Of a DNA stretch of 64,000 nt, positions 22,301-62,230 are shown one piece after another; the first letter of the stretch is position 1; each line of letters starts with the position of its first letter. Both the position numbers and the translations under genes were made by a program. Origin of the DNA: Styela clava. Lineage: Eukaryota; Chordata; Ascidiacea; Stolidobranchia; Styelidae. The notes beneath the pieces were generated by a model. That model did no database searches. It was given only the letters and a program-made list of their open reading frames with translations, and was not told where the DNA came from. The stretch covers positions 6,470,151-6,534,150 of the forward strand of contig NC_135257.1 in assembly GCF_964204865.1 (NCBI RefSeq), in the 5' to 3' direction.

Positions 22301-25052
22301 AATACATTCTATATTTTATTTAAATATTTTCATGATAGATTGATCCTCCAATATTATTTCGATTCACAACATCCATCATTACTTCAAAAATGTGACTTAT
22401 TTTCAACAACAATTCTCACTCACAGAGCATGCAGTGGCAACCTGTACACCTCAAGAAATATCCTGCAAAGTAGGAGGACAAGAATCATGTATTACAGCTA
22501 TTTGGCGGTGCGATGGATGGGTGGATTGTGACAATGGCATAGATGAACGTGGTTGTCCAACAAAACCACCAAACACAGGAACAACACCTGATCAAAATGT
22601 CGGAAACTGTAAAGATAACGAAGTAAGATTTATTCATATCATTTTTGTTTTTAAATATGACTGCTTTTTTGTAAACACAATCAACCTCTTGTTATATTGG
22701 TGAAAACACTTTGGGTGTTAGAATTTTCATCATGATAAACAGGATTCTCATTTTCAACGAATGCGTTGATTTGTTCCATCAGTTATCAGTGAAAAAAATT
22801 CATTCATTCTGCTCATATATTATTATTCTTATACTTTTGACATAACAAATATAACTCAAATTCTGAAGATTGAATTTCTGTGAAAAAAGTATACTTTTGT
22901 TGTACTCTGACAACATTAGTTGAGATGATTTATTTTTTACAGTTCCGTTGTTCGGATGACAGCTGTATACCAAGTATATACAGATGTGATGGAGTTCGTG
23001 ACTGCCCTAGGAGTGGTGAAGATGAGAATGGATGTGATTCCTCATCAAACTGCCCTAGTGGGAAATTCTATTGTACGTCGACATCAACTTGCCTGAGCTC
23101 TGAAAAACAATGTGATGGCGTATTTGATTGTGAATCTCAGGTATGTATTTGTATAATGGAAAACTGATTTTAAAAGTCACATAAAATTTTTTTTTTTAAT
23201 AATTGATACAAATTAACAAAATTAGTATACTTATGGCATGAAATTTTGGGATTAGTGATCCAGAGAAAAGCATACCCATCAACAAATACCCCGGTTGACA
23301 TTGGTCCTAAAAATGTGTGAAAGGTATCTTTGGAACGATACTTGATGTCTTTACTAGTACCACAGTAATTATATAATATACAGATATAATAGATGATACA
23401 TATATGAAAGGATGCACAGCTAATTATATCGGTAAAACCCTATGTGCTATATAATAAAACAAAGTTTAATAATTTCTCTTCATAAAATGAGAAATAAAAT
23501 TGATTTTTCCAATCAACAAACATCGTATGTTCAATTACACCTATACTTCCCTATATTTGTTTTCTCTGATCAATAAAACGTTTAATATAATATACACAGG
23601 CTGATGAAAGTTTATGCAATGTCTGTCCTGATAATTACTGTGGTGAGGGAGGAACTTGTGGATTAACATCAAATAAAGCCCCAATATGTACTTGCAAAGA
23701 TGCATATGTGGGAACCAGATGCCAAACTAATAGAGAACCCCCTGAAGGAACTGGTGGCTTAAGTGGAGGTATGTGTACGGATGTTCCAAGCACTTATTAG
23801 ATTGAATGCACTCGCAGATCAATGTTTTTTTTTGTATTTTTGAAAAAGCAACAACACCTTTTCCGCATCTCGAAACAGAGGCAGCCTAGACATAAAGAAC
23901 TAATGGGTTCAGTTTGATATTATATATTAGTCTTACACATAAATCCATTATAATCAGATAATCAGTCCAGAATAAGCATTTTTGTCATAAATTTTGTTCT
24001 ACAGGTGCAGTTGCTGGAATAGTTCTTGGATGTATTGGTGGTATTGCAGCTATTGGCCTAATTATTATATTTGTTATGAGAAGAGATGGCAATATCAGGT
24101 AAATTTCTTTGGTTAAAAATATTGTCATATTTGGTTTAACTGCCCAAGCCATACTTGCCTATAATAACAGTGTTCTAAAAACTTACTTTCTAACCTTAAA
24201 AATTTAATTAGTTATTGCACCTTGGGTGTCCTTGCTCGATAACCAATTTTTGTTCCTTGCGGCTTTCCTTCCCCAGTAAAAATTAATTTTATTTTTTGTC
24301 AATTTTGCATGTTATTTTTCACTGGATGGAAAAAATAAACTTGACTCTGTCTTTGAGAGATATATTTGCAAAAATAGAGTCTATGTGATAATATTTCGGT
24401 GTCTTTGACATACTTCTGGTCCAGACTTTGGCTTGATTTTTTATTTTTGCGTGTTGGTTGCTCAAGATGTCTCCCCAACACCTTCCAGTTGTCCCCACCT
24501 TTGTTAAATCCCTCCCTTTGCCTATTTTCGAACTCTTTATTCTTCCTTCCCTATGCACAAAACTACTCTATTTGCTCAATCTTTAATCGACGCTTTGCTA
24601 GTGTTATGTGCAACTCAAACTCTGTCCCAGTACAATTTGAGCAGTTTATTATGTGTTCATAAATTAGTAGTATATTAATAATAAAAAACTAAAGAATATT
24701 AGCCATACTACAGTGAATATGAAGCAAAATTCCGTCCTAAAAGCGACTGAATTCCTCCACGGTAGGGAAATGCTGCCTCATAATATCTATTTTACTTCTA
24801 AAATCTCTCAGGCGACAAGCTTTACTGGATGAACAAAGTGGACAACGAACATATGACAACCCATTGTTTTCTTCAAGTTCATCTCCTTCATCTGGTGGTG
24901 GCGGAGACTACAACTTACAAACTTTTGGTACTCCTACTACCCCTGGAGTAATAGAAACGAGTAAAGGCTTTGAAAATCCATTATTTGGAGATGGCAGTGG
25001 TGACGCCACAGTTTATGCTACTTTTGGTAGTTCATCTGAATCTAAAGCTTGA
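110..25052 (+). CDS. MAM and LDL-receptor class A repeat receptor (MALRD1-like), 5' end outside window
   Basis: Fifty exons joined in frame from 110 to the TGA at 25050-25052 give about 2,805 visible residues; the N-terminus lies upstream of the window. Order: partial MAM, then eleven LDLa-MAM alternations, three further LDLa repeats, one EGF-like domain, a single transmembrane helix and a short cytoplasmic tail, so a type I surface protein. LDLa repeats show the calcium-cage pattern CDxxxDCxDxSDE; MAM domains show CDFE..LCxW starts, PxxDHT and IDD motifs. Pro/Thr-rich linkers separate some domains (near 3400, 10600, 15150, 19010). The architecture matches the MALRD1 (Diet1) family, where MAM/LDLa arrays mediate extracellular binding; the ligand here is unknown. 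Intron phases agree at all 49 junctions. A poly(A) signal AATAAA lies at 25414-25419. Sure of the family, less sure of orthology. Exons are listed in the unit entries that follow. Confidence 0.93.
1363..3986 (+). other. MAM2 and LDLa2 of the MAM/LDLa receptor
   Basis: Exons 1363-1560, 2789-3015, 3311-3509 and the start of 3954-4136. MAM2 opens with [10 protein letters not shown] and ends at GIDDVVF; a Pro/Thr linker follows (about 3400-3445). LDLa2 is split by the 3509/3954 intron and reads CPDGQFHC to [10 protein letters not shown]. The 1561-2788 intron is enlarged by an 811-bp hAT-type insertion. Confidence 0.9.
1671..2481. mobile_element. Non-autonomous hAT-type element, 811 bp
   Basis: Terminal inverted repeats of 16 bp are perfect (CAGCGTTTCCCAAACT at the left, its complement at 2466-2481). 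Both sides carry the identical 8-bp target duplication TTCTACAT (1663-1670 and 2482-2489). No transposase frame is visible inside. It sits in an intron of the MAM/LDLa gene. Confidence 0.9.
3954..5358 (+). other. MAM3 and LDLa3 of the MAM/LDLa receptor
   Basis: Exons 3954-4136, 4383-4564, 4707-4824 and 5181-5358. MAM3 starts [10 protein letters not shown], has PSDHT before the phase-1 intron at 4137, and ends VGVDDITF. LDLa3 runs CQFDEFGC to [10 protein letters not shown] and ends just before the donor at 5359. Confidence 0.9.
5929..7833 (+). other. MAM4 and LDLa4 of the MAM/LDLa receptor
   Basis: Exons 5929-6106, 6186-6302, 6618-6716, 7216-7389 and the start of 7797-8086. MAM4 begins [10 protein letters not shown] and ends SIDDISF. 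LDLa4 is CGTGQLAC to [10 protein letters not shown], split by the 7390-7796 intron between the two Asn codons of CDFNNDC. The 6717-7215 intron holds a 154-bp hAT-type element. Confidence 0.9.
6828..6981. mobile_element. Small hAT-type MITE, 154 bp
   Basis: Ends are CAGGAATGGGCAAT and, on the other strand, CAGGAGTGGGCAAAT. Flanks TTTAAGTT (6820-6827) and TTTCAGTT (6982-6989) match 7 of 8 as a decayed target duplication. Intronic in the MAM/LDLa gene. Confidence 0.8.
7797..9105 (+). other. MAM5 and LDLa5 of the MAM/LDLa receptor
   Basis: Exons 7797-8086, 8271-8424, 8733-8854 and 9015-9163. The first MAM5 exon is unusually long (290 nt) because the intron normally placed before the DHT-type motif is absent. 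LDLa5 reads CTAGLKQC to [12 protein letters not shown], with an inserted residue and a doubled cysteine in the calcium-cage region. Confidence 0.88.
9015..10784 (+). other. MAM6 and LDLa6 of the MAM/LDLa receptor
   Basis: Exons 9015-9163, 9361-9535, 9810-9969, 10149-10221 and 10584-10784. MAM6 starts [10 protein letters not shown] and ends AVDDVSF. A Pro/Thr linker of about 25 residues precedes LDLa6, which reads CDSTYNLNC to [10 protein letters not shown]; the usual Asp after CD..DC is replaced (CPNGYDE), so calcium binding may be weakened. Confidence 0.87.
10883..12371 (+). other. MAM7 and LDLa7 of the MAM/LDLa receptor; uses a GC-AG intron
   Basis: Exons 10883-11000, 11229-11364, 11700-11861 and 12160-12370. 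MAM7 starts [14 protein letters not shown] and lacks the two N-terminal cysteines of its siblings. Its third exon ends in CAG followed by GCATGT at 11862, a GC donor. Phase and homology (Q then IIIAK, as in the other MAM units) both support it. LDLa7 reads CDSSEFTC to [10 protein letters not shown]. Confidence 0.85.
12616..15325 (+). other. MAM8 and LDLa8 of the MAM/LDLa receptor
   Basis: Exons 12616-12732, 13242-13381, 13739-13909, 14724-14817 and 15137-15325. MAM8 begins [10 protein letters not shown], carries PLRDHT and ends AIDDISL. A Pro-rich linker (about 15140-15200) leads to LDLa8, CDETLHFTC to [10 protein letters not shown]. The 13910-14723 intron is 814 bp, AT-rich, without coding sequence. 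Confidence 0.87.
15650..17322 (+). other. MAM9 and LDLa9 of the MAM/LDLa receptor
   Basis: Exons about 15650-15873, 16350-16559, 16977-17111 and 17228-17322. The first acceptor is uncertain: AG at 15648-15649 or 15654-15655 both keep the frame, and neither has a good pyrimidine tract. MAM9 reads [11 protein letters not shown] to AIDDFLF; LDLa9 reads CGSNEFTC to [12 protein letters not shown] and is split by the 17112-17227 intron. Confidence 0.82.
17373..17460. repeat. Possible fragment of a palindromic MITE family
   Basis: The stretch beginning GGGGGCGCTCCAGAAGTG, followed by ACCAATATGGAGGTAAC, resembles the ends of the foldback element at 51610-51803 (GAAGT..TG..ACC.AGATGG.GG). No partner terminus was found. 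Weak call. Confidence 0.3.
17668..19144 (+). other. MAM10 and LDLa10 of the MAM/LDLa receptor
   Basis: Exons 17668-17879, 18169-18387 and 18899-19144. MAM10 starts [10 protein letters not shown], has PSFDHT and ends AIDDISF. After the linker [11 protein letters not shown] comes LDLa10, CSAGLYPC to [10 protein letters not shown]. Confidence 0.9.
19458..20925 (+). other. MAM11 and LDLa11 of the MAM/LDLa receptor
   Basis: Exons 19458-19581, 19796-19937, 20063-20196, 20434-20593 and the start of 20874-21060. MAM11 begins [10 protein letters not shown], has PDNDHT split by the intron at 19582, and ends AIDDVQF. LDLa11 reads CSGDQFSC to [10 protein letters not shown]. Confidence 0.9.
20874..22622 (+). 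other. MAM12 and LDLa12 of the MAM/LDLa receptor
   Basis: Exons 20874-21060, 21535-21720, 21857-22099 and 22426-22622. MAM12 is the most divergent full copy: it starts CTFDSAEVW and has a longer, Ser/Asn-rich opening. It still carries PTDDHT and ALDDITF. LDLa12 reads CTPQEISC to [10 protein letters not shown]. Confidence 0.85.
22609..25052 (+). other. LDLa13, LDLa14, EGF-like domain, transmembrane helix and cytoplasmic tail
   Basis: Exons 22426-22622 (end), 22943-23140, 23600-23768, 24005-24098 and 24812-25052. LDLa13 is CKDNEFRC to [11 protein letters not shown]; LDLa14 is CPSGKFYC to CESQADESLC. The EGF-like domain is [12 protein letters not shown] to [13 protein letters not shown] hydrophobic, Gly/Ile-rich helix (24005-24080) is followed by the stop-transfer residues MRRDGN. 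The tail, about 80 residues, contains YDNPLF and FENPLF. Confidence 0.9.
24190..24770. repeat. Repeat related to the element at 46727-46974
   Basis: The intron before the last receptor exon contains segments similar, with mismatches, to the right half of the lipocalin-intron element: TATGTGTTCATAAATTAG and CATACTACAGTGAATATGAA versus TATGTGTTCATGAATGAG and AATACTACGGCGAATACAAA. The order and orientation are the same, but the termini are not clear here. Confidence 0.45.
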
Positions 25053-29110: not shown

Positions 29111-31744
29111 ATGCATCCGGGTGTGGAATACCTGAATAGTAAACGATTGAGCATAATGGCAATATCGGTATGTATATCAAATAAGAAAGACTTACTATTA
29201 TTATATTATTATTTTATAGGAATACGTACGTCAGACGTCGAGTAATCACCGGCGAACTAACACTTTGTTCATGGCTCACCTCTGCCAGCTTAGACTAATG
29301 CGCATCACTTTCATCTTAAGCAACTAATTTTATTGTGTACGGGCAAACTTCATTCAAAAGTTCATAAATAATGGTCCTTATATCAGTTCATATTTATTCG
29401 TTGAACCAAGGTAGCTCTGAATGTTTATGATAAAAAGCTCTATGTGACTAAATGATTTTCACGCAGACGTCACAGTTCATATTGGGTTTGCTCTGCATTC
29501 TATTTTGGACGGCAAGTACTCAATATTGCAGATATTGCTATGATTCTCATGGATTTGACTGGTCACAATTTTGTCAATGGACAGCGCCTTTACAAGGAGT
29601 TTGGGGTGGAATATTTGTACGTATTCGGGTTTTATAATCTCCTTCTAATTTTGTCTCTTTTATATCTCATGGTTTTCTTGTTCACATTTCTTTCCGTCTG
29701 CCTCTATCACTTCATGGCTACCTCTTCGTTATTTTTTCGTTTTATAATTTTATTTATTACGTCCAATCAATCTCCCCTTACAAATCTATGTTTCAGGCAT
29801 TACTTTGTGGGAGCATAGGCGTAGTGCGGGCATGCAAGACGTCAATAGCGGGGGTGAGTAAAACTAGAAGTATTCATTTATTCTATTGCCTTATCGTGGT
29901 AATAAATGAAACAATGGCGTTTTCTGTTTGACGCATTAAATATACTGTATATTTCAATAGTATATATACAATAAATAAAATAAATTGCTGGACAGACACG
30001 AAATGGACCTATAGGTAGTTATAGTGTTGTTAGTATTCTCCTTGCAGTTAATATGAAAACAATCGGTTTCCCATCTTGCTACTGGATAAATTGCTTTGAA
30101 ATTTTCAGTGGTTAAAGATTGTTGTTGTCGCTATAAATTAGAAGGCTATTATTTTATTCATTTCAAAAATTTCTGTGGGCTCTACGTTTCTTATGTGCAA
30201 TGACGTCATCAAAATAAAGAATCGTGGACCTTGGGGCTGTTCCGCGTTCGCGATCGTTGCTATCGTGTGGTCAGGCGAAGTCGGAAGACCAAGGTAACGA
30301 AAGTCTACGGTCTACGGTTTGCACATGAAAGTCATTAGTGGTTCTGTTGTGAATGTACGCAATAATATCTCATGTTCATATTCATAATAAATTATCTATT
30401 TGAACTTGATTCAGAATTCTTCTCACATCGCTGCGTCTGTTTTATCTCTTTTAACCTCGTCGGCAATGGTGGCTTTGGAAATATTATTAATTACTGACAA
30501 CGTAATCTTTGATGGGACAGCGGATTTCAAAGAACATTGCTTACCTGAAGAAGGAATTATAATTTGGAAGTATTTCCATTATACATTGATAGGAATGGGA
30601 GGCTTATGCTTTATATTAAGCATACCCTCTTGCATTATGACAAGTTATGCGCAATGTGGATGCTGTGGAACACATTGTGATACGGAGGTGGGTGGAAGTC
30701 GTCGATACATAATCATATTGTAGATGTGATATTGTTACAAAATGTTTGTTATCACAATATTTACGTGATAAGGTATTTCATATAAATATATATGAAGAAA
30801 AATTAATGTACAAACATGAATGATATATTTTCAATTGTTTTATTTCAAAATATTCCCTCTTTTGTTACTTTTGGGCCAATTTTGTTTAATATTTTACACG
30901 TTTATTACAAATAGATCAAAACTAAAATCAAAATTGTACTAACATTTTGACAATACATTCTAACCCACATCGATTTTACTGAACGCACGCTATACCAATT
31001 AACCGAATGCATTGAAAGCAACCCGATTATTAGAATAACCCAAAAAATAGCTTGGGTGCATTCGATGTTTCATGGACTTTCTTTACTTAATATGTCGTAT
31101 ACAATGCGAACAAGAAGTAGCCTAAACATACCTATGTTATTTACTTGATAAAAAATGTTTCAGGCCGACTATGAATATTTAAGAAATGATGGTATTTCGT
31201 ATGAAGAACGATTTGCACCACCTCGACACAGTAAGTATTATATACTAATACGTAGTCTAATATTTGAGTGTAATGATAAAACTAACATACAAACATTTGT
31301 CTATCAATGCTCTTATCTGTTTTTAGATATAGAACTATTTCAAACCGTACCTAAAATAAACTTTCCTATTTCAAATATATATTCCGGATTGGAATTTCAA
31401 CTGTGTATTTATTCTCAGCTAAGTTTCGCTTATTCGTTCCAGATGAAGTTAGAGTACAAGCTTGTGTTCATCATTCATGTAATTGTGAGTTACCTGCTCA
31501 TCAACAAGAACGATTTCAACAACATGAGGTTGTACATGCTCAAGAACCAAGACGATATGTACCTATCGATGATATTCTACGAATGGATGCAGAAAACGAA
31601 GGCGAAGGGGGTGATGATAATTTAATCCAGCTTGAGGACGAACCCGAAACTCGTGAGAATACTAGTGGAAGAACACAAATCAGTGAAAATGCACAAGATC
31701 ATCAGGATCCTACGGAACCACCTCCTCCGTATACTATAACGTAA
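29111..31744 (+). CDS. CD20-like four-transmembrane protein with C-terminal PPPPY motif
   Basis: Exons 29111-29167, 29467-29616, 29797-29853, 30415-30687, 31164-31230 and 31443-31744 sum to 906 nt (301 aa). Four hydrophobic segments: about residues 20-37, 67-85, 93-115 and 140-165. The second begins with GVWGGIFALLCGS, which resembles the WGGI..SGS element of CD20/MS4A-type proteins. Between helices 1 and 2 is a Cys/Trp-rich loop (YCRYCYDSHG). After helix 4 comes a Cys cluster (CGCCGTHC), then a hydrophilic, acidic tail of over 100 residues ending EPPPPYTIT. PPxY motifs bind WW domains of NEDD4-family ubiquitin ligases. The combination recalls the ENTREP (FAM189) group, but orthology is inferred only. 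The start is the first Met of the exon that joins in phase 0. AATAAA at 32138-32143. Confidence 0.75.
30081..30217 (+). repeat. Dispersed repeat family, copy 1
   Basis: Shares with 58909-59004 the string TTTGAAATTTTCAGTGGTT, then AGAAGGCTATTATTTT and TGACGTCATCAAAAT in the same order. Lies in an intron of the tetraspan gene. Inverted relatives are at 33609-33670 and 54892-54960. Confidence 0.7.
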
Positions 31745-33670: not shown

Positions 33671-34742
33671 ATATTCAAAGTGACAGGCGATTTTTTCACA
33701 AGAAGAGGATGGAAAAAAATAGTAACAACAAGAACAACAACAACATAATACCAAAACGCATTTCGTGCCCCAAAAATGGCACAACCTGCGCATATTGATT
33801 TCCTGAACCCAACTGTAGTCATTCAAAAAATTGATTCAAATTTTAAACATATTATATATATATATACATATATTCAATTAATCACAAAATCCGTCGGGTT
33901 GAAGTGAGCATGTGATACCATATTGGTTTTTCTCACATGAAAAGTTCTCGATTTATATGTTCACATATTTTTTAAAACACGCGCAAATGTAAATGAACTT
34001 ATAATAGCCAATACTCGAACAACCTGAAGTAACTATGTAACCTATATGAAATGTGTAAAAGGCGAAACCCTGGAAGTTATTGCGTCGATTTAAAACATGA
34101 GTACATCGTAGTATTCAAAGAAAAATGATCGAACGGGAAACTAGTTGAATTCAATTTACGCTGAGTATTAAGGGCATGCCCACGGAAGATGTATTTGGAT
34201 TCATACCTAATTCAGATATTTATTTCGTCGTTCATGAAACATTGCAAACATTGTCATTTTGTCAACGACACCATGCTCGCCGAGTTGAAAAGCAGACGTT
34301 AAACAAACACCAATGATAAAATTAGAATATATCAACATGGCATGAAATGTCCAATTTAGACGATAAATCAATGATCAAATATATAAAGACGAAAGCCAAA
34401 ACGAAATTTTCAATCAACCAATTATTGGCATGAACTATAAACGAAGGTAGAGTATTTGAACCAGCACTGTATGGAACTTCAACTGTCACATCTACATTGC
34501 ATAAACTAGATTTTTCTTTCTAAAAGGGACAGAGGAAACCATTTCAATAGCCGGAAATCCATAAATACGAAATTCAATTTACCTGTGCGGTAAGAGATGA
34601 TTCTGACTTTCGCCCTCCAACACACGAGTATTGGCGAATGACTATTTGGCGTACCGCGTATATCAGGTTTAAAATGAAAAAGTAACAAATCGCAATCTCA
34701 AAAAATTCATATAAATATATATCTATTATCCGTACGTTTCGT

Positions 34743-34750
34743 TATAAAAA
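34743..34750 (+). promoter_or_regulatory. Candidate TATA box of collectin-like copy A
   Basis: TATAAAAA lies about 112 bp upstream of the ATG at 34862 and about 20-30 bp upstream of a block (TCGTAGTGCAGTTT) conserved before all three copies. The TATA-like run itself is not conserved in copies B and C. Inference only. Confidence 0.35.
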
Positions 34751-34861
34751 TACAGTTAAGATCGTAGTGCAGTTTGTATCGTTGAAATTATATTGACTTA
34801 ATTAAATATTTCAGGTCAAATAAAACTTCATAATATTTGTGCTTTAACCAAAACGATAGCT

Positions 34862-36630
34862 ATGATGTCGAAGACAATGCTGGTCCTTTGTGCTCACTTA
34901 CTGATCTCATTTGGTGACCCTTCAGGCGAAAGTGAGCATATGATCTGCAAAAAAATCAAAAACGTTTTTGAGAGCGATATTCATCAACCTTCGAACAGTT
35001 CACCTTCGCGTGTTCAGCAGGGTCGCCCCGGTAAAATTGGACCGAAAGGTGAAGTGGGACCACAGGGCCCCTCTGGAAATCGTGGACCGATTGGCGTCGT
35101 CGACTACGAACTTGTAAACTCGACTACAAGAAAAATAGTTTCTAAAGGTATGCACAATATAAATTGTTATACCTGTAGGCTATCTGATTTTTTCAATTCA
35201 AATAATAAGTTATAACAAGTCTTTTGCTCGCTCATTTTGTTTTAAAGTAAAACAATTGAATGGCCACATACTATTCGTATCCTCGTAAAACAAATCTTGT
35301 AATTCATTTCATCTTTATATTCAAAGCTATTTCGGACTTGAACGAAAAAATGCAACGAGAATGCAATGAAAAACTTGGAAGACAAGATGAAAAATACCAA
35401 TCTATTGTGGCAAGTTTGAAACAACCATTAGGTGTTTATATAGTTAAACTTATTCTACTTATATTGTCATCAATTTTTCTTTTGCTTTGCTAATAAAGTT
35501 ATAATATATTTTGGATATATTCACGCCTTTTCAGATTCGAGATATATTCTGATAGAAAATATTGCACCCAGAGCTTGACAATATATATATATATATATAT
35601 TGCATAGTAAGCAATTTTTATTTAATTCGACACTTAATTTCATTTGCCTGTTTTGGAAAAAAATGCCACCACAATAAAGCTTAATTATGCAAGTATACCC
35701 GAGGTTCGACAAATAGTGCTGCCTTTTATCATGCGTTAAATTGTATAACTAACCATGATAATATTGAAATCATATACCCTATTAATAATTATGATTTCGT
35801 AATTTATTATACGTTACACATTTATTATATTGCTCCCAACAATTAACTATAAAACATTTCAGGTCACTGCGTAATAGCTTTTGGTGGAATTTGCAGTTTT
35901 ATCTTGAAAGGAGGATGGAATTGGTCAACATCCCTATTGAAATGCACTAACGTAGGCGCGCACCCAGCTGATATTTTCGACAAAGAGCATTTGAACTTAC
36001 TGAAGAATTATATAAGAAAAATCGCAATGTTGAAAACTGACAGCTGGGTGGTGTATTACACTGGGATGCAGTACAACGTGCAGGTATATAAATACAGTGT
36101 TTTCGTATTAACATAGTGATTGAAGTTGCACACACTGAAACAAATTTATTTTATTATAGAAAAAAAACACTGATTTGTGATTTGAAGGAGAAATATTAAA
36201 CCTTATGTATAGGTTTCTTCCTACACGACTTGTAAGTGGAGCAAGTAGTTGTAAATGTGTAGAAGTAAAGTGAACTATGTTTCACTGTTGAGCATATCTT
36301 GCACGTATAATAGTTCACAATTGAAAAACAATATTAGGTGCTTGTTTCTTACATAGTTGCCATGACTACATGTAGCTCTCTAAGACATACTTGATAAACA
36401 AATCCCGACCTCATTGTTTTTTATTCTTCCAGACAAAACAATAAATACTTTACAATGGGGCCAACGGTGGTTATGTAGAATGGTATCCAGGTGGCATTGA
36501 ACCACAAAGTTTATCGGAAGACCATCGTGTTGTTCTTGGAGTTCGTAAAGATGAAACTCAGAAAGAAGGGATGTTCACCCGCATGGAAACGAAAAGCTAC
36601 CATGGAGTTATTTGCCAGTTTGAGATTTGA
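34862..36630 (+). pseudogene. Collectin-like gene copy A, C-terminal lectin segment cut off by a nonsense codon
   Basis: Exons 34862-35147, 35327-35431, 35863-36083 and 36433-36630 (810 nt) match copies B and C exon for exon. At 36442-36444 the codon is TAA where B and C have TCA, so the product would end at residue 207 of 269. The frame behind the stop stays open to TGA at 36628-36630. The part present has a signal peptide, eight Gly-X-Y triplets (from GRPGKIGPKGEVGPQG), a helical neck and the first half of the lectin-like domain. Lost are the EP loop and the final ICQF cysteine, which normally closes the domain. The neck has Cys in QRECNEK where B and C have Trp. A 5'UTR donor seen in B and C is deleted. 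It may be a pseudogene, a null allele or a truncated secreted protein. AATAAA at 36901-36906. Confidence 0.82.
35575..35602. repeat. (TA)n microsatellite in intron 2 of copy A
   Basis: Alternating TA run, found at the same intron position in copies B (about 38588-38606) and C (about 42325-42352), with different lengths. Confidence 0.8.
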
Positions 36631-37361
36631 TATTTACATAAATATAATAATGCCATCTGCACTATACGTTCCAAACGGGAGCAAGGACACGCAGATGGGG
36701 ACACCCATACCCCTATAGAACAACAACAGCATCTAGAAATACAATTCACAAGTACAATTTGCGTTCGTTTTTCAGTTAATTTTATGCTATGACGCGGATA
36801 TAATACAACTTTTCACTTTTAATCAGTTGTTTCTTGACTATACAAAATTAAAAGTTTCCAAATTACTTTATGTATAGATTATATAGAAATTATCCTGCTA
36901 AATAAATGTATCGACTTTTCGCGGCTACAAAAAGTAATTACTATTATGTTGAATGTAATTTAATAACTACATAATTATATACACTAGAAAATATAATGCA
37001 AAGCTATTAAAATGGTTTGTATTGAAATATATGGTTTATTATTCTTTGTATTCACAAAAATACAATGATTTCGAATTTACTGATTATCATCATGTCGTTT
37101 AAAGTGCATCGGTTTGATGAATAAAATTACCAGTTGATGAAAAATACTCAAACCAACTTATTTATGAGATATGTTAGTCGTTCTCACAAAATCAAAAACA
37201 TGTTTTGAATTGAAGTTGCAGCAGATGTTGCAAGAATGACTGCTTCCGACCACCCTTGTTTTATAACGAAGCATATTTAAAGTAGACTTATGTAGATAGG
37301 GTAATCTAAGAATATACCTGTCATGTATGTTCGCGTTATATCGCTAATTACCAACTAAAGT

Positions 37362-37571
37362 GTGAAGTCATTTGGTATGACAACCCTAAACGTCAATGAC
37401 AAACGTGACTTGATCAAAACCATACTTCTCACGCGATGTTTCGTAAATGAGTTTAAATCAATGACTGCATTTCATACTTCAGATAATGCCGCAAGTATAC
37501 GTGCGCATTTGCAGAACCTCCAAAATCAAGGCCCCCGTGCGATTCTTGTCGACAAGTTAGTTACGTTATAG
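37362..37571 (+). other. Short open frame duplicated upstream of copies B and C (B version)
   Basis: Codes 69 residues starting MKSFGMTTLNVNDKRDLIK. The counterpart at 41090-41287 ends with the same KLVTL and stop and shares TILLTRCFVNEF and AFHTSDN. The only indel between them is a multiple of three. No signal peptide, no known domain, no splice evidence. It could be a decayed exon or mere open DNA within the duplicated unit. Confidence 0.3.
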
Positions 37572-37706
37572 TATGCACGTTGTGTTGCACAGTATATTTT
37601 GCGGTGGAGATCTGGCCTCAATTTAGTCTTAGGTTATTTTAGAAAGTCCAAGTTGCGCTCGTAGTGCAGTTTGCATAGTTGAATTGGATTGAAATGAAAA
37701 ACTCAG

Positions 37707-37840
37707 GTACTCGTACCTCGGTGTCTGTCGGGTATAATGTTTCAGCGATAGGAAACAGCGACAGCTATAAATTTATATTGTGTTTTATCTAGTAAGAAGA
37801 AATTATACTAACATTTCATTTTACCTATTAAACATTTCAG
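37707..37840 (+). other. Probable 5'UTR intron of copy B
   Basis: Donor CTCAG|GTACTC and acceptor AACATTTCAG|GTCAAT, 46 nt upstream of the ATG. Copy C has the same pair (41452-41552). Copy A keeps only the acceptor. An alternative is that the acceptor receives a trans-spliced leader, common in tunicates. Confidence 0.5.
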
Positions 37841-37886
37841 GTCAATTAAAACTTATAATATTTGCGTTTTAACCAAAAGGATAGTT

Positions 37887-39664
37887 ATGATGTTGAAGAC
37901 AACGCTGGTCCTTTGTGCTTACTTACTGATCACATTTGGTGATTCTTCGGGCGAAAGTGAGCATATGATCTGCAAAAAAATCAAAAACGTTTTTGAGAGC
38001 GATATTGATCAACCTTCGAACAGTTCACCTTCACGTATTCAGCAGGGTCGTCCCGGTAAAATTGGACCGAAAGGTGAAGTGGGACCACCGGGCCCATCTG
38101 GAAATCGTGGGCCGATTGGCGTCGTCGACTTCGAACTTGTAAACTCGACTACAAGAGAAATAGTTTCTAAAGGTACACACAATATAAATCGTTATGCGTG
38201 TACCTGCAATTTCCAGTTCTGATAATAAGTTATAACATTTTTTTTGCTCAATCATTTTGTTAAACAGTTGAATGACCACATACTATTCGTATCATAGTAA
38301 AACAATTCTTTTTATTCATTTCATCTTTATATTTGAAGCTATTTTGGACTTACAAGAAGAAATGCAACGAGAATGGAATGAAAAGCTGGAGAGACTAGAT
38401 GAAAAATACCAATCCATTGTGGCAACTTTGAAACAACCATTAGGTGTTTATAGTTAAACTTGTTCTACTTATATTGTCATCAATTTTTCTTTTGCTAATA
38501 AAGTTATAATATATTTTGGATATATTCACGCCTTTTTAGATTCGAGATATATCCTGATAGAAAATATTGCAGTCAGAGCTTGACAACATATATATATATA
38601 TAATATTTTACATAGTATGAAACTTTTATTTAATTCGACACTTAATTTCATTTGCCTGTTTTAGGAAAACAGCACCATAGTAAATGTTAATTATACAAGT
38701 ATACCCGAGGTTTGACTAATAGTGCTGTCTTTCACATGCGTTAAATTGTATAACTAAACATGATAATATTGAAATCGTATATCCTATTAATAATTATGAT
38801 TTCGTAATCTATTATACGTTACACATTTATTATATTGCCCCCAACAATTAACTATAAAACATTTCAGGTCATTGCGTAATAGCTTATGGTGGAGTTTGCA
38901 GTTTTATCTTGAAAGGAGGATGGAATTGGTCAACATCCCTATCAAAATGTACTAACGTAGGTGCTCATCCAGCTGATATATTGGACAACGAGCATTTGAA
39001 CTTACTGAAGAACTATATAAGAAAAATCGCAATGTTGAAAACTGATAGCTGGGTGGTGTATTACACTGGGATGCAGTACAACGTGCAGGTATATAAATAT
39101 GGTGTTTTCGTATTAACATAATGAATGCTCACTGCAACGAATTACTTCTAATTTAAAAAAATAAACAAAAATTCGAAAAATTATAGCTTGTTTCATTTGC
39201 CACAAATTGAAGGAGGAATATTAAATCTTTTGCATAACTTCCTATACGACTTTGAAAGCGAGGCTTGTAATTGTAAATGTGCTGACATGAAGTGAACTCT
39301 GTTTTACTTACAAGAATGTCTTTCATGTTTGATAATTCATAATTGAAAAACTACTTTAGGTGCCTATAATGTAAATTTTCTCTAAAATGGTTGTGCATGA
39401 CTATATGTAGAAACTCAAAAACGCACTTGATAAACAAACACCGACCACAATTTTGCATGCTTTCAGGCAAAACAATCAACGCTTTACAATGGAACTAACG
39501 GTGGTTATGTAGAATGGTATCCAGATGGCAATGAACCACAACAATCATCGCAAAACATGCACGTTGTTCTTGGAGTTCGCAAAGATGAAAATCAGAGCGA
39601 AGGAATGTTCACCCGCAGAGAAACGAATAGCTATCATGGAGTTATTTGCCAGTTTGAGATATAA
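37887..39664 (+). CDS. Collectin-like secreted protein, copy B (short collagen stalk, neck, C-type-lectin-like domain)
   Basis: Exons 37887-38172, 38339-38443, 38868-39088 and 39467-39664 give 269 aa. Exon 1: two Met in a row, signal peptide to about residue 20, a lone Cys (MICKK), then eight uninterrupted Gly-X-Y triplets (about residues 53-77) that include GPPGPS. Exon 2: the neck, with heptad-like Leu/Ile spacing (EEMQREWNEKLERLDEKY), likely a trimerising coiled coil. Exons 3-4: lectin-like domain with HCVIAYGGVC, WNWSTSLSKC, AHPADI, VEWYPDGNEP and the closing GVICQFEI. In canonical collectins an EPN loop and a WND motif bind calcium and sugar. Here only EP is kept, no WND is visible and the inner cysteine pair is missing. 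The family role is pattern recognition in innate immunity; ligand here unknown. AATAAA at 39894-39899. Confidence 0.85.
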
Positions 39665-41089
39665 TATATACATGAATATAATAATGCCAGCTACACTATA
39701 CGTCCCAAGTATGCATAAAATGAAACTCAGAAATATATATTATCATACAGATTCCTATTTCTCAAAGTATGATGTGACTGGAGCTAGTTCACCAAATAGA
39801 TAACGTCCCTGTTGTGTCACATATGGCTATGGTTATATAGCCCACAAACACCCAGTGAATAATAAGGTAGCACAAATAGTATATATGTACAAAAATAAAC
39901 TCGTGATCAAGAGTGAAAGTTTTCGACTTTTCTTACGTCAGTATCATTGCGCCAATAGTTGCAATGCTTTTTTGTTTTGAAAAACAAGCATTTTTCATTT
40001 TGGTTCAATTTTGCAGAGGAAGTTATGACAGTATGACATAGCAAATTTTATAGGAAACGCCAAAACCAAAACCATAGTCAACCTAATATCATAGTCTACT
40101 GAATATAGTTCGCTCATGGCCGGTTCGCTACGCATGAGTGATGCGTTACTACGTGACCAGTTTGCTATATTTTGAAGCTTACGGAAGAGGATTTCGGTTC
40201 GAATTTATTTGCGTATTTGCAAGATTTTTGTTGGTTGAAATAACTGAAAATATATATTGAGGCATTAAGATAAAGTAGGGGGTCTGGCTACTGCCACGAC
40301 GAGCGTTATTAGCTCGTGACGAAATCTCGGTCTCGTGTGATTACACTTGTGTTTTCTCCCAAAGAGCCCTCAATAGCATTCGCGGCAGACATCAAACACC
40401 GTAAACTCAGCTTGAATATTCAGAAAGCGAAGACGGCGTTATTGCACCATTTTATTATTGGTGCCGACTGCCATCTTACAGGCGATTTTTCGATTGCAAC
40501 AATCTTACTTTTTTGAAATAGTGAAACATTCTTTATTTTAAATTAGATGACTTTTCGAGTTCTCCCGGAAAATGCTGAGTACCCGACGTTGGACGATGAA
40601 ACATTATTTGCGATTAATTTAGATAAAATTTTACCTTTCGCTACACCCGGTTTCCGAAAATACGAAGTTACAACGCAAAATAATGCGTTTTGTTACATTT
40701 ATTTTGCGCTGCCAATAAAATACATATATATATCTTAGATTTCGAGTCGCTGATAAAACCGTTCTGATTAGCTCCATGATGTTTAAAATGCATTGATTTG
40801 ATGAATGAAATTACAAGTTGTTGATGAAACATACTTAAATCAACTCTTATATGAGACATGTTAGTTGTTCACAAATAATCATCAACATGTTCTAACGAGC
40901 GAGAAAAATTGACGTTGCAGCAGATGTTGCAAGAATGACTGCTTTCGACCACCCTTGTTTTATAACGGACCTTATTTAAAATTAACTCATGCAAAAGAGG
41001 TTAGCTAAGTATTTAATATCCCTGTTATGTATGTTCACGTTATAATGATAATTACCAACTGAAGTGTGATACTTGTAAAGTCTTTTGGT

Positions 41090-41287
41090 ATGACGACCCG
41101 GAACGACAATGGCAGGCAGGTCTTGAACAAAACCATACTTCTCACGCGATGTTTCGTGAATGAGTTTAGATCTATGAGCGCTTTTCATACCTCGGATAAT
41201 GACGCAGCCCGCAAGTATGCACATTTTCAGAGCTTTAATAATCATGGTTCTCGTGCTATTCTTGGCAATAAGTTAGTTACGTTATAG
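41090..41287 (+). other. Short open frame duplicated upstream of copies B and C (C version)
   Basis: Counterpart of 37362-37571; opens upstream at ATG 41066 and shares KSFGMTT, TILLTRCFVNEF, AFHTSDN and the KLVTL end. Many of the differences change amino acids, so strong purifying selection is not evident. Function unknown. Confidence 0.3.
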
Positions 41288-41451
41288 TATGTACGTTGTG
41301 TTCGAATTGCACAGCATATTTTGTGTTGAAGAAATATATGGCCCCAATTCAGTCGTATGATTTTTTTCAGAAAGTCACAGTTGCGCTCGTAGTGCAGTTT
41401 CACCAGTTTGTATCGTCGAATCAAGTTGAAATGGAAAACTTTAATACTCAG

Positions 41452-41552
41452 GTATTGGTGTCTGATATATCACTGTTTCATCGATAGGTCCAAAATTATA
41501 TTTTGCTTTATTTAATAAGAAGAAATTATACTGACTTAATTAAACATTTCAG
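41452..41552 (+). other. Probable 5'UTR intron of copy C
   Basis: Donor ACTCAG|GTATTG and acceptor AACATTTCAG|GTCAG, 45 nt upstream of the ATG at 41598. Positionally equal to the copy B intron. Confidence 0.5.
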
Positions 41553-41597
41553 GTCAGTTCAACTTATAATTTTTGTGGTTTAACCAAAACGATAGTT

Positions 41598-43260
41598 ATG
41601 ATGTTAAAGAAAATGCTGGTCCTTTGTGCTTACTTACTGAATTCATTTGGTGATTCTTCGGGCGAAAGTGAGCATATGATCTGCAAAAAAATCAAAAACG
41701 TCTTTGAGAGCGATATTAATCAACCCTCCGACAATTCACCATTACGTATTCAGCAGGGTCGCCCTGGTAAAATTGGACCGAAAGGTGAAGTGGGACCACG
41801 GGGCCCCTCAGGAAATCGTGGACCGATTGGCGTCGTCGACTACGAACGTGTAAACTCAACTACAAGAGAAATAGTTTCTAAAGGTATGCACAGTATAAAT
41901 TGTTATACGTGTAGGCTACCTGATTTTTTCAATTCTAATAATAAGTTATAACAAGTCTTTTGCTCGTTCATTTTGTTTTGAAGTTAAACAATTGAATGAC
42001 CACATACTATTCGTATCACCGTAAAACAATTCTTTTTATTCATTTCATCTTAATATTCAAAGCTATTTCGGACTCACAAGAAGAAATGGAACGAGAATGG
42101 AATGAAAAACTTGGAAGACTAGATGAAAAATACCAATCTATTGTGGCAAGTTTGAAACAATCATTAGGTGTTTATATAATTAAACTTATTCTACTTATAT
42201 TGTCATTAATTTTTCAATGATTTCAGACTTTTTGCTGATAAAGTTATAATATATTTTAGATTTTCCACGCCTTTTCAGATTCGAAATATATACCCATAAA
42301 AAATATTGCACCCAAAGCTTGACAATATATATATATATATATATATATATTGCATAGTAAGCTATTTTTATTTAATTCGACACTTAATTTCATTTGCCTG
42401 TTTTGGAAATATGCCACCACAATAAAGCTTAATTATGCAAGTATACCAGAGGTTCGACAAATAGTGCAAAAAAATTATGATTTCGTAATTTATTATACGT
42501 TACACATTTATTATATTGCTCCCAACAATTGATTATAAAACATTTTAGGTCACTGCGTAATAGCTTATGGTGGAGTTTGCAGTTTTATCTTGAAAGGAGG
42601 ATGGAATTGGTCAACATCCCTATCAACATGTACTAACGTAGGCGCTCACCCAGCTGATATTTTTGATAAAGAGCATTTGAACTTACTGAAGAACTATATA
42701 AGAAAAATCGCGATGTTGAAAACTGACAGCTGGGTGGTGTATTACACTGGGATGCAGTACAGCGTGCAGGTATATAAATACATTGTTTTCGTATTAACAC
42801 GATGAATGAAGTCGCGCACACTGCAACAAATTTTAAAGCTTGGTTTCTTCCTATACGGCTTTGAAAGTGAGGCATGTAATTGTAAACGTGCTGAAGCGAA
42901 GTGAATTCTGTTTTACTGTCGAGCAATTATCTTACCCGTATAATAATTTATAATTGAAAAACAATTTTAGGTGCCTTCAATGTAAATTGTCTCTAATAGA
43001 CCAGTATCTCTCAATGACATCCTTGATGAACAAATCCCAGCGACAATTATTCATGCTTTCAGACAAAACAATCAACACTTTACAATGGGGCCAACGGTGG
43101 TTATGTAGAATGGTATCCAAATGGCGATGAACCACTACAATCATCGCTAAACAAGTATGTTGTTCTCGGAGTTCGTAAAGATGAAAATCAGAACGAAGGA
43201 ATGTTCACCCGCAGAGAAATGGATAGCTATCATGGAGTTATTTGCCAGTTTGAGATATAA
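41598..43260 (+). CDS. Collectin-like secreted protein, copy C
   Basis: Exons 41598-41883, 42063-42167, 42549-42769 and 43063-43260 give 269 aa, the same structure as copy B. Signal peptide (MLVLCAYLLNSFG), eight Gly-X-Y triplets with GPRGPS, neck (EEMEREWNEKLGRLDEKY), lectin-like domain ending GVICQFEI. Position 43072-43074 is TCA (Ser), where copy A has a stop. The loop that is EPN in sugar-binding collectins reads DEPLQ here, NEPQQ in B and IEPQS in A: the most variable short stretch between the copies. Possible N-glycosylation at NSTT and NWST. AATAAA at 43788-43793. Confidence 0.85.
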
Positions 43261-46200
43261 TATATACATGAATATAATAATGCCAGCTGCACTATACGTA
43301 CCAAGTATGCATAAAATGAAACCCAGAAATATATATTATCACACAGATTCCTATTTCTCAAAGTATGATGCGACTGGAGCTAGTTCACCAAATAGATAAC
43401 GTCCCTGTTGTGTCACATATGGCTATGGTTGTTCTATAGCAATATTTAGGCAAACAATCTGACAAATTGGAGCTGTTTGTAAATATATATATATTCACCA
43501 TTAAGAGTAAAAACTTCTATTGAACTTATTTTCTGCGTCCGAAAAACTTTCGCCGTCCGACAAACCTCCTGGTATATGGCAAATTTGGACGTTATAGTTA
43601 TACATTTATTATTGGACGAATCTATACTGAAACCCAGTTAACAAGATTAAAAGCTGTGTGGTGTATGGTAACGTGTGCCCTAAGTTAATAGACTCAAGTA
43701 AAATGTATTGAATATAGGAGTATTTTGTGGTTTTATCGCCCACAAACACCCAGTGAATAATAAGGTAATACAAATATTATGTACAAAAATAAACTCGTGA
43801 TCAAGAGTGAAAGTTTTCGTCTTTTCCTACGTCAGTGTCATTGCGCGAATAGTTACAATGCTTGTTTTATTTTGAAAAGAAGCATTTCTCGTTTAAGTTT
43901 AATTTAGCAGAGAAGGTTATGACAGTACGGTATGCATAGCCAATTTTATAGGAAAAGCCAAAACAGAAACATAGAACAAAACAGAAAATAATGCGTCACG
44001 ATTAAGACGTCACAATAACTATGAAAACAATCACGCTATGTGTTTAACAACATAAATGTTAGATGTTAGTATTTTCATTTTTCTTCTCCATTCCCAATTG
44101 TAAAAAACTTTTCATATATAATTTTATACTTATTCAATACAAAATTATTTTTTGTAGCAGTTAAGCGGCATGCTTGATTAGCTGTCTAACGGCATAATAT
44201 TACTTGGCCTATGGTAGTTAAAGAGAGAGAATTTGTAAAATATGTGTAAATCTTTTGACTGTTTTCGTCATCGTAGTCGAATCTGGTAAACACTTACGCT
44301 TCAGACACAGTTAGTTGTGATGTCATGCACGGCTTCAAAATAATCCATGATTTTTGAAGATATTTTTGAACTTTGGCGTGGGCAATATAGTGACATTCAA
44401 ATCCAATAATTCCACGTTTCCCAACCAGGGGAATTTTGTTTCCATTTGCAGCAGTTTTACTAAGACTATTTTCATTATTACTATACTACTTGATTATGCA
44501 CACATGATAAACTCAACTACTTAAGCTGTGCAAAAACGGGAGCTCAGTTTACTTAAAAACGTTACTAAAAAAAGTTACTTTTTATTCATAATGAGGGTAA
44601 AATAAGTTCCAAAATAGACGAAGGGGGAATTTAATAAAAAAGATTGAGAATCATTTCAATAATTCCTCCAATTTAAAATTGCATTGATAAAATTAGAAAA
44701 AATTCTAGCAGTAATTGCTAGCAATCAGTTTTTTAATAACATAATGAAAGCCTACAAATACAAAACAACTCTGCACCCTCGGAATGAAATCACTGATACA
44801 TAATATCGGCTATTAATTTCTACATTTATGCCTTAAATTTTAAATAATATTCAAAAATAACAAACAGAATGGTAAAAAATGATTTTCTGACTTTTGTCTT
44901 TAGCTATAATTACAATATATAGTCCAGTACTTCTTCATGTATTTCTCGTAATCAATCCGGCACGCTTATTTTCAGGCGTGGGAATTCTGCGTGATATTCA
45001 TCAAAAAGTAAGCGAAAGTTTTTTCACTAACGTAAACAAAAGTGCATTCATAAACAGCAAAGACGCTTGTAAACATTTGTTTTAACATAATTTACATGCA
45101 TGAACTGTGACAAAACAATTTCGACAAAAAACGAGAACCGCAAGACGATCAATCAATTGATTAGTTATAATATGGATTTATATAATAAATCGATGTTTGG
45201 ATAAAAACCTAACCAGCACAAGCTTTATAGAAACTGTAAAAATATTGGCAATTTTGCCGCCATTCTCGTAATTTTGTAAGGTATAATCGTATCTCTGTTT
45301 GATCGACATTGAACTGATTTTATGTAAACCATATAGTTTCTCCATCAATTCCAGTTTATTTGAAAGGCCTTTTTCGCTACTCTTAGTTGGACGACGGACG
45401 GTCTTTTTATATTGGAATGAGATCGAAATTATCTTTTGTTTAAACTATACTATAACAAAAATTTACCACATTTAAATATATAATCGCTATTATAACGTAA
45501 AAGATAATTAGCGATATGTTAATTATAAAATATTTATCAACGTTTTTAATTTTTCGACGTTTTGTGTCCAGGGCAGGGTACGTTCTTTAAGGCCTTCTAA
45601 TAAGTTGTTGCGTATAAGTGTAAACAACTGGTTCCGCTTTATGCCTAATTTTTTTCCTGTTTTATGTTTAAATTTAGAAAACAACAATTGGAGTCACGTA
45701 CGATTCTGCCAAACCCCAAAATACGTGAATACTTAATTCCTGTTAAATTTAAAACCGTTTTTTTTAAATTTTAATTATCAGGAAAGAAGAGGGATTGTAT
45801 TTTTTCCCCTTTTTCGGCAAGTCTGCAAACATGAAAATATTTAACCGTATGAGCTATAAATATAATAATAAGCCTTCAAAATAGGGTGTTTCAATTTTCT
45901 TCCAGTCTAACTTGTAACTTGTACATCATCTGCTACACTTTTGCATGGTCACTTGCAACATTTGAGGACGTGACATTTTCTTAAAAAATTTCACTTTTTA
46001 AAAATATTTCCATTTTAACGCATTGATAGTTAAGAAACAAATTACAATTTTTTTCCACTGACTAATTTTCACGTGGCATAGGAAAGTTATAGATTCTGAC
46101 TTTCTGTCCATTTTTGTTGTACTTCATAAAATCATATGGTTTTAATTTACCATCAAATTTACAGAGAACTTATCATTATGTTTATAAGAGATACCTATGC

Positions 46201-50877: not shown

Positions 50878-62230
<11,353 letters not shown>

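What the first reader, a model, noticed from the sequence alone, without database searches (positions are those of the whole stretch)
34862..43260. Tandem collectin-like genes with an altered lectin domain
Each copy joins eight Gly-X-Y triplets, a 35-residue coiled neck and a C-type-lectin-like domain that keeps the outer cysteines and the EP of the sugar loop. It lacks the inner disulfide and a WND motif. Between copies the loop after EP varies (IEPQS, NEPQQ, DEPLQ) while the stalk hardly changes. This looks like an expanding recognition family with non-canonical binding, and it is my best candidate for something undescribed in this window.
Basis: partly seen in the sequence, partly recalled or inferred. 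Interest (0 to 1): 0.7.

Follow-up and report, generated by a model that had tools for sequence, protein, structure and literature searches.

The report
Three tandem mini-collectin genes, one broken
An animal genome carries three neighbouring copies of a gene for a small secreted immune-type lectin with a collagen stalk; two look intact, one carries a stop signal, and the lectin head seems to have lost its usual calcium and sugar site while the stalk keeps a short sequence that in vertebrate relatives docks complement proteases.

Summary
Three tandem four-exon genes (A, B, C; 269 codons each) encode a leader, eight Gly-X-Y triplets, a 35-residue neck and a C-type-lectin-like domain (CTLD) with four Cys, an EP and no WND. 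B passes the Pfam Lectin_C cut-off; C does not. (1) A has an in-frame TAA at codon 208, upstream of the loop; it is probably a pseudogene, and 11 of 17 unique nonsynonymous loop changes are A's. For the intact pair B/C dN/dS is 0.29 overall and 0.94 in the loop, with no significant excess after correction. (2) A's gene body is far closer to B/C than its flanks and exon 4 are: gene conversion explains much of the stalk/head contrast. (3) All copies carry PGKIGP, fitting the published MASP-docking motif. Best reading: secreted trimeric collectin-type recognition proteins with a possible MASP dock and a head lacking the canonical Ca2+ site. A tunicate-like genome is plausible but unproven. The kind is known; diversifying selection is not shown.

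The parts
34862..36630 (+). Copy A: exons 34862-35147, 35327-35431, 35863-36083, 36433-36630; in-frame TAA at 36442-36444 (codon 208); probable pseudogene or truncated product
37887..39664 (+). Copy B: exons 37887-38172, 38339-38443, 38868-39088, 39467-39664; intact 269-aa frame
   Evidence: Pfam Lectin_C 23.4 bits full length, 25.5 bits CTLD alone, cut-off 22.6
41598..43260 (+). Copy C: exons 41598-41883, 42063-42167, 42549-42769, 43063-43260; intact 269-aa frame
   Evidence: Lectin_C 15.6 bits, below cut-off 22.6
38046..38117 (+). Eight GXY triplets in B (A 35021-35092; C 41757-41828)
   Evidence: Pfam Collagen 19.8 bits in B and 19.7 in C, below cut-off 27.2
38052..38069 (+). PGKIGP in B, fits the MASP-docking motif (A 35027-35044; C 41763-41780)
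   Evidence: motif definition from passages of PMC2592599 and PMC3179595; arises in 2.3% (A, C) to 4.6% (B) of X/Y shuffles of the same triplets
38339..38443 (+). Neck exon of B, 35 codons, phase 1 at both ends (A 35327-35431; C 42063-42167)
   Evidence: core positions hydrophobic: 9 of 9 in B, 8 of 9 in C, 7 of 9 in A; 1 of 20000 shuffles of B reaches 9; spacing pattern chosen after looking
38868..39661 (+). CTLD of B in two exons (38868-39088, 39467-39661); A and C likewise
39506..39574 (+). Loop codons 218-240 of B with EP at 39533-39538 (A 36472-36540; C 43102-43170)
37080..40077 (+). B duplication unit with flanks, pairs with the C unit 40764-43974; A pairs with either only within 34784-36674
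37834..37844 (+). ATTTCAG|GTCA acceptor-like site 46 nt ahead of B's ATG (first base after AG 37841; A 34815, C 41553): 5'-UTR intron or trans-splice acceptor (inferred)
   Evidence: sequences also

Best explanation
B and C are intact genes for short secreted collectin-type proteins. Inferred working: three chains zip together through the neck; the eight triplets form a short collagen helix whose Lys58 (in Pro/Hyp-Gly-Lys-Ile-Gly-Pro) docks a MASP-type protease; three CTLD heads bind a surface ligand, so that clustering on a target would activate complement-like proteolysis. The head keeps the CTLD frame (Cys158-Cys265 and an N-terminal Cys133-Cys141 pair, pairing inferred) but lacks the canonical Ca2+/sugar site: Gln or Leu follows EP, Phe-Thr-Arg stands where WND would be, and the inner disulfide is absent. 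Binding is therefore probably Ca2+-independent, or of non-sugar or anionic ligands, perhaps through Arg254 (speculation). Copy A is a partly gene-converted, probably dead copy. Shown by sequence: gene models, domain order, motif, stop codon, conversion-like pattern, constraint on exons 1-3 of B and C. Inferred: secretion, trimer, MASP docking, ligand class.
For: Domain order equals that described for MBL (Cys-containing N-terminus, collagen, coiled neck, CRD; PMC2592599 section 5). Lectin_C above cut-off for B; all 3 CTLDs match it at E up to 10. With a profile of the three CTLDs, 12 of 15 PDB sequences listed are CTLDs, DC-SIGN first, though all at E 0.15 or worse. WND position reads FTR in hhalign and by count from the C-terminus. 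PGKIGP is identical in 3 of 3 copies, Pro in Y, Lys in X, aliphatic Ile, as the motif asks. Constraint in exons 1-3: B-unique changes 7 of 19 nonsynonymous, C-unique 11 of 22, against 74% expected, P 0.0007 and 0.014; A-unique 13 of 21 (P 0.21) and in exon 4 18 of 21, the stop itself included (P 0.44; 17 of 20 without it, P 0.44).
Against: C's CTLD and the collagen segments of B and C are below Pfam cut-offs. hhalign to three recalled CRDs gave 4.5% probability (E 0.009); local alignments of B to them were weak (shuffles scoring as high: 42, 9 and 240 of 300). In exon 4, the part that bears the loop, constraint is seen for B only weakly (4 of 9 nonsynonymous, P 0.043) and not for C (7 of 8, P 0.69) nor for both together (11 of 17, P 0.27). 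The motif arises in 2-5% of shuffles, and eight triplets make a short helix. One Cys (29) precedes the collagen after the leader, against three in human MBL. No expression data; MASP genes of this genome not searched; fold not predicted (exon-3 fragment pLDDT 41.4).
Confidence: 0.55

Rival explanations
1. Expanding recognition family with positive selection on the loop while the stalk is held constant.
For: Loop dN/dS 2.5 (A-B) and 4.8 (A-C). A-unique loop changes 11 nonsynonymous and 0 synonymous, slightly above neutral (one-sided P 0.047). Fisher P 0.028 (A-B) and 0.0045 (A-C), A-C scan P 0.031, and nominal hypergeometric P below 0.05 for every set. C-unique loop changes 5 nonsynonymous, 1 synonymous.
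Against: The excess is mostly in A, downstream of its stop codon. B-C gives 6 nonsynonymous and 2 synonymous, dN/dS 0.94, P 0.70 against neutral; C-unique 5 of 6 gives P 0.55; scan P 0.18 for three copies and 0.41 for B-C; gene conversion confounds the stalk comparison.
Confidence: 0.12
2. Collagen-stalked CTLD used as a structural, mucus or egg-coat protein rather than in immunity; the MASP-like motif is coincidental.
For: Canonical Ca2+ site lost; short collagen; motif found in 2-5% of shuffles.
Against: Domain order, neck and motif register together match lectin-pathway molecules.
Confidence: 0.25
3. All three copies are dying relics.
For: A has a stop codon; C has Ser at neck core position 100, its Lectin_C score is below cut-off, and its exon-4 changes fit neutrality.
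Against: Frames and splice borders of B and C are intact and exons 1-3 are constrained.
Confidence: 0.08

Closest known systems
Mannose-binding lectin and other collectins
   Same: Order of Cys-containing N-terminus, GXY, coiled neck, CTLD; [quoted passage not shown]
   Different: Eight triplets only, no collagen interruption, one N-terminal Cys after the leader, no EPN/WND, no inner disulfide, CTLD split by a phase-0 intron (the single CRD exon of vertebrate collectins is recalled, not looked up).
Ciona MBL-like collectins (nine collectin genes; MBL and MASP transcripts in gut)
   Same: Collectin-type genes; known to me only from passages and citations in PMC514892, PMC5465252, PMC10433773 and PMC11312191.
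Halocynthia glucose-binding lectin (GBL)
   Same: An ascidian C-type lectin reported to work with MASP in C3 activation (passage of PMC5465252).
   Different: Reported to lack a collagen domain (passage of PMC514892).
Ficolins
   Same: Collagen stalk with the same MASP-docking motif.
   Different: Head here is a CTLD; the fibrinogen-like head of ficolins is recalled, and named FREP in a passage of PMC11312191.
CTLDs without a canonical site (CiCD94-1; bivalve lectins with other motifs)
   Same: CTLD without the usual motifs; CiCD94-1 is said to lack carbohydrate binding and probably to recognise peptides; bivalve examples.
   Different: Collagen stalk here; not described for those in the passages I saw.

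Membership tests
Collectin (architecture) | Collagen GXY domain joined to a C-type lectin domain through a coiled neck | tested here: met
   Eight triplets, 35-residue neck with a hydrophobic core pattern, CTLD; the Pfam Collagen model itself is below cut-off
Collectin / MBL (head) | Ca2+ site with EPN (or QPD) and WND | tested here: not met
   EPQ (A, B) or EPL (C), and FTR in the WND register
Collectin / MBL (head) | Two conserved CTLD disulfides, outer and inner | tested here: not met
   Only Cys 133, 141, 158, 265 in the CTLD; none at the inner positions
Lectin-pathway recognition molecule | MASP motif Hyp-Gly-Lys-Xaa(aliphatic)-Gly-Pro in register | tested here: met
   PGKIGP, 3 of 3 copies; definition; shuffles 2-5%; hydroxylation of the Pro is inferred
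Lectin-pathway recognition molecule | Binds MASP and activates complement | not testable with these tools
   needs protein
CTLD superfamily | Sequence match to the Lectin_C profile | tested here: met
   B above cut-off; C below it at 15.6 of 22.6 bits
CTLD superfamily | CTLD fold | tested here: inconclusive
Ciona collectin family | Orthology to the described genes | not testable with these tools
   no tunicate sequence collection held; own-genome search unanswered in 11 attempts

The most novel reading that the evidence does not exclude
A miniature collectin class in which the MASP dock is kept but the Ca2+-dependent sugar site has been replaced by an invariant Arg-containing site (FTR in place of WND), so that complement-type activation is coupled to a Ca2+-independent, possibly non-sugar ligand; gene conversion homogenises the stalk exons while exon 4 drifts or is selected separately.
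Probability: 0.25. Interest if true: 0.55.

Novelty: new member of a known kind. Interest (0 to 1): 0.3.

Why it matters
If B or C docks a MASP while the head binds without Ca2+, it would show that lectin-pathway initiators can change ligand chemistry while keeping the protease interface. PMC11312191 states that the function of urochordate collagen-bearing MBL and ficolin in activating complement is still not clear (passage). The locus also warns against reading paralogue loop differences as selection when one copy is broken and gene conversion is active.

Tried and rejected
Positive selection on the loop: not supported for the intact pair; the tests that do favour it all involve copy A and are listed under the rival. 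More copies in the window: none found. Relatives in viral contigs (24 pattern matches, 0 confirmed) and prokaryote contigs (68 pattern matches, 0 confirmed), queried with exon 3 only: none, as expected for an animal gene. Rfam and tRNA scans of the window: 0 matches each. Single-sequence PDB search with B's CTLD: 3 hits, the best a CTLD (KLRG1) at E 0.38, the other two antibody light chains. Species identification: not achieved; small AT-rich genes (30-38% G+C per 2 kb) and a downstream PI3K-gamma-like gene fit a deuterostome such as a tunicate, by inference only. Fold prediction of exon 3 alone: mean pLDDT 41.4, not used, and no fold search was run on it. The spliced protein was not handed to the structure tool, because its rule asks for proteins read letter for letter from the DNA with no skipped codons; the exon-4 alignment was made but not folded. 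Of the rows dropped: three-state sites (3 in exons 1-3, 0 in exon 4) were left out of the unique-change counts; rows 34760-34909 and 36110-36259 lie between the two blocks of the conversion test and were left out of it; the 36860-37009 row (17 columns) was too short to use.
Full report
What is there. Three tandem genes on the + strand, each of four exons of equal coding length (286, 105, 221 and 198 nt), each spanning 269 codons: A 34862-36630, B 37887-39664, C 41598-43260. Each reads: hydrophobic leader, short linker with Cys29, eight GXY triplets (54-77), linker, a neck in its own exon with phase 1 at both ends, and a CTLD split over exons 3 and 4. Pfam Lectin_C matches B above its cut-off (23.4 bits full length, 25.5 for the CTLD alone, cut-off 22.6) and C below it (15.6); Collagen is below cut-off in both. 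A profile of the three CTLDs lists 15 PDB sequences of which 12 are CTLDs (DC-SIGN first) and 3 are not, none with a significant E-value; profile comparison with three recalled human CRDs is weak and single alignments of B to them are weak too (42, 9 and 240 of 300 shuffles score as high). So the CTLD assignment rests on Pfam for B, plus near-identity of B, C and A; the fold was not modelled (exon 3 only, pLDDT 41).

The altered head. From the C-terminus back, EGMFTRRETNSYHGVICQFEI is as long as the recalled human MBL segment [21 protein letters not shown], so WND reads FTR and the inner Cys is Thr. EP lies two residues further from the preceding Trp than in MBL, so its identity with the EP of EPN is likely but not certain; the next residue is Gln in A and B, Leu in C. 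The canonical Ca2+ site is therefore not expected. Lectins with other motifs are reported, and some are still Ca2+-dependent (passages of PMC12842671), so loss of the motif does not by itself prove Ca2+ independence.

Copy A is broken. Codon 208 of A is TAA (36442-36444), where B and C read Ser. A product ending there would lack the loop, EP and Cys265. A's own changes look neutral: 13 of 21 nonsynonymous in exons 1-3 (expected 74%, P 0.21) and 18 of 21 in exon 4, the stop included (expected 76%, P 0.44). B's and C's in exons 1-3 do not: 7 of 19 (P 0.0007) and 11 of 22 (P 0.014). In exon 4 the same test gives B 4 of 9 (P 0.043), C 7 of 8 (P 0.69), both together 11 of 17 (P 0.27), so constraint on the loop-bearing exon is not shown for C. 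A also has changes at two neck core positions (W108C, L115Q). An assembly error, a rare allele or a functional truncation are not excluded.

Does the loop evolve fast? Among unique nonsynonymous changes in codons 218-240, A has 11, B 1, C 5. A's 11:0 ratio is marginal against neutrality (one-sided P 0.047). Comparisons with A show an excess (Fisher P 0.028 for A-B, 0.0045 for A-C; scan P 0.077 and 0.031), and a test of the fixed interval gives nominal P below 0.05 for every set, B-C included (0.040). The intact pair shows no excess by the other tests (dN/dS 0.94; 6:2; P 0.70 against neutral; Fisher P 0.16; scan P 0.41).

Gene conversion. B and C share about 3-kb units with flanks (37080-40077 with 40764-43974, broken by small gaps); A matches them only within 34784-36674. 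Outside it A is 38-48% identical to both while B and C are 76-81% to each other (rows 34460-34759 and 36710-36859). In 34910-36109 (exons 1-3 with introns 1-2), sites pairing B with C against A are the minority (28 of 131), but in 36260-36709 they are 61 of 117 (Fisher P 7e-7; blocks chosen after looking). The simplest account is conversion of A's first three exons by B or C sequence, leaving exon 4 divergent. This makes 'constant stalk, variable head' partly mechanical.

How it may work. [quoted passage not shown]). The three copies carry Pro56-Gly-Lys58-Ile-Gly-Pro61 with Pro at Y and Lys at X. Shuffling X and Y residues of the same triplets recreates such a motif in 2-5% of trials, so this is suggestive, not proof. 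With MBL's domain order (PMC2592599 section 5, read), I favour a secreted trimeric lectin-pathway-type recognition protein with a non-canonical head. Secretion, trimerisation, docking and ligand are inferred.

Setting. Upstream ORFs carry MAM and LDLa domains and downstream ORFs a class I PI3K nearest to p110-gamma among the PDB hits shown. Acceptor-like ATTTCAG|GTCA sites lie 45-47 nt ahead of the three ATGs. A tunicate-like deuterostome is plausible but no call establishes it.

Novelty. Ascidian collagen-bearing MBLs and nine Ciona collectins are in print (passages of PMC5465252, PMC514892, PMC11312191). My searches showed, in their listings and in the passages I opened, no description of a collectin with this head plus this motif; but most listed papers were not opened, the library is open-access only, and the primary Ciona papers were not read. 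I file it as a new member of a known kind.

Noticed in passing
window 51608-51805: A 198-bp imperfect palindrome (matches its own reverse complement at 77.5%), upstream of the first ORF that matches PI3K; possibly a mobile-element remnant.
   Followed up: no
window 52543-61010: ORFs of a class I PI3K whose helical domain is nearest to p110-gamma among the 60 of 84 PDB hits shown (99 bits against 70 for beta and 68 for alpha).
   Followed up: partly
window 15535-15951 and 22344-22700: A MAM domain and an LDL-receptor class A domain, parts of one or more multi-domain genes upstream (two ORFs tested).
   Followed up: partly
window 37359-37571 and 41063-41287: Duplicated segment ahead of B and C, not found ahead of A, with open frames of 70 and 74 codons of similar sequence; coding status untested.
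   Followed up: no
window 40078-40763: Stretch between the B and C units with no match elsewhere in the window at E 1e-8.
   Followed up: no
window 29456-31741: Three ORFs with hydrophobic stretches just upstream of the array and no Pfam match at E 0.01; perhaps a multi-pass membrane protein.
   Followed up: partly
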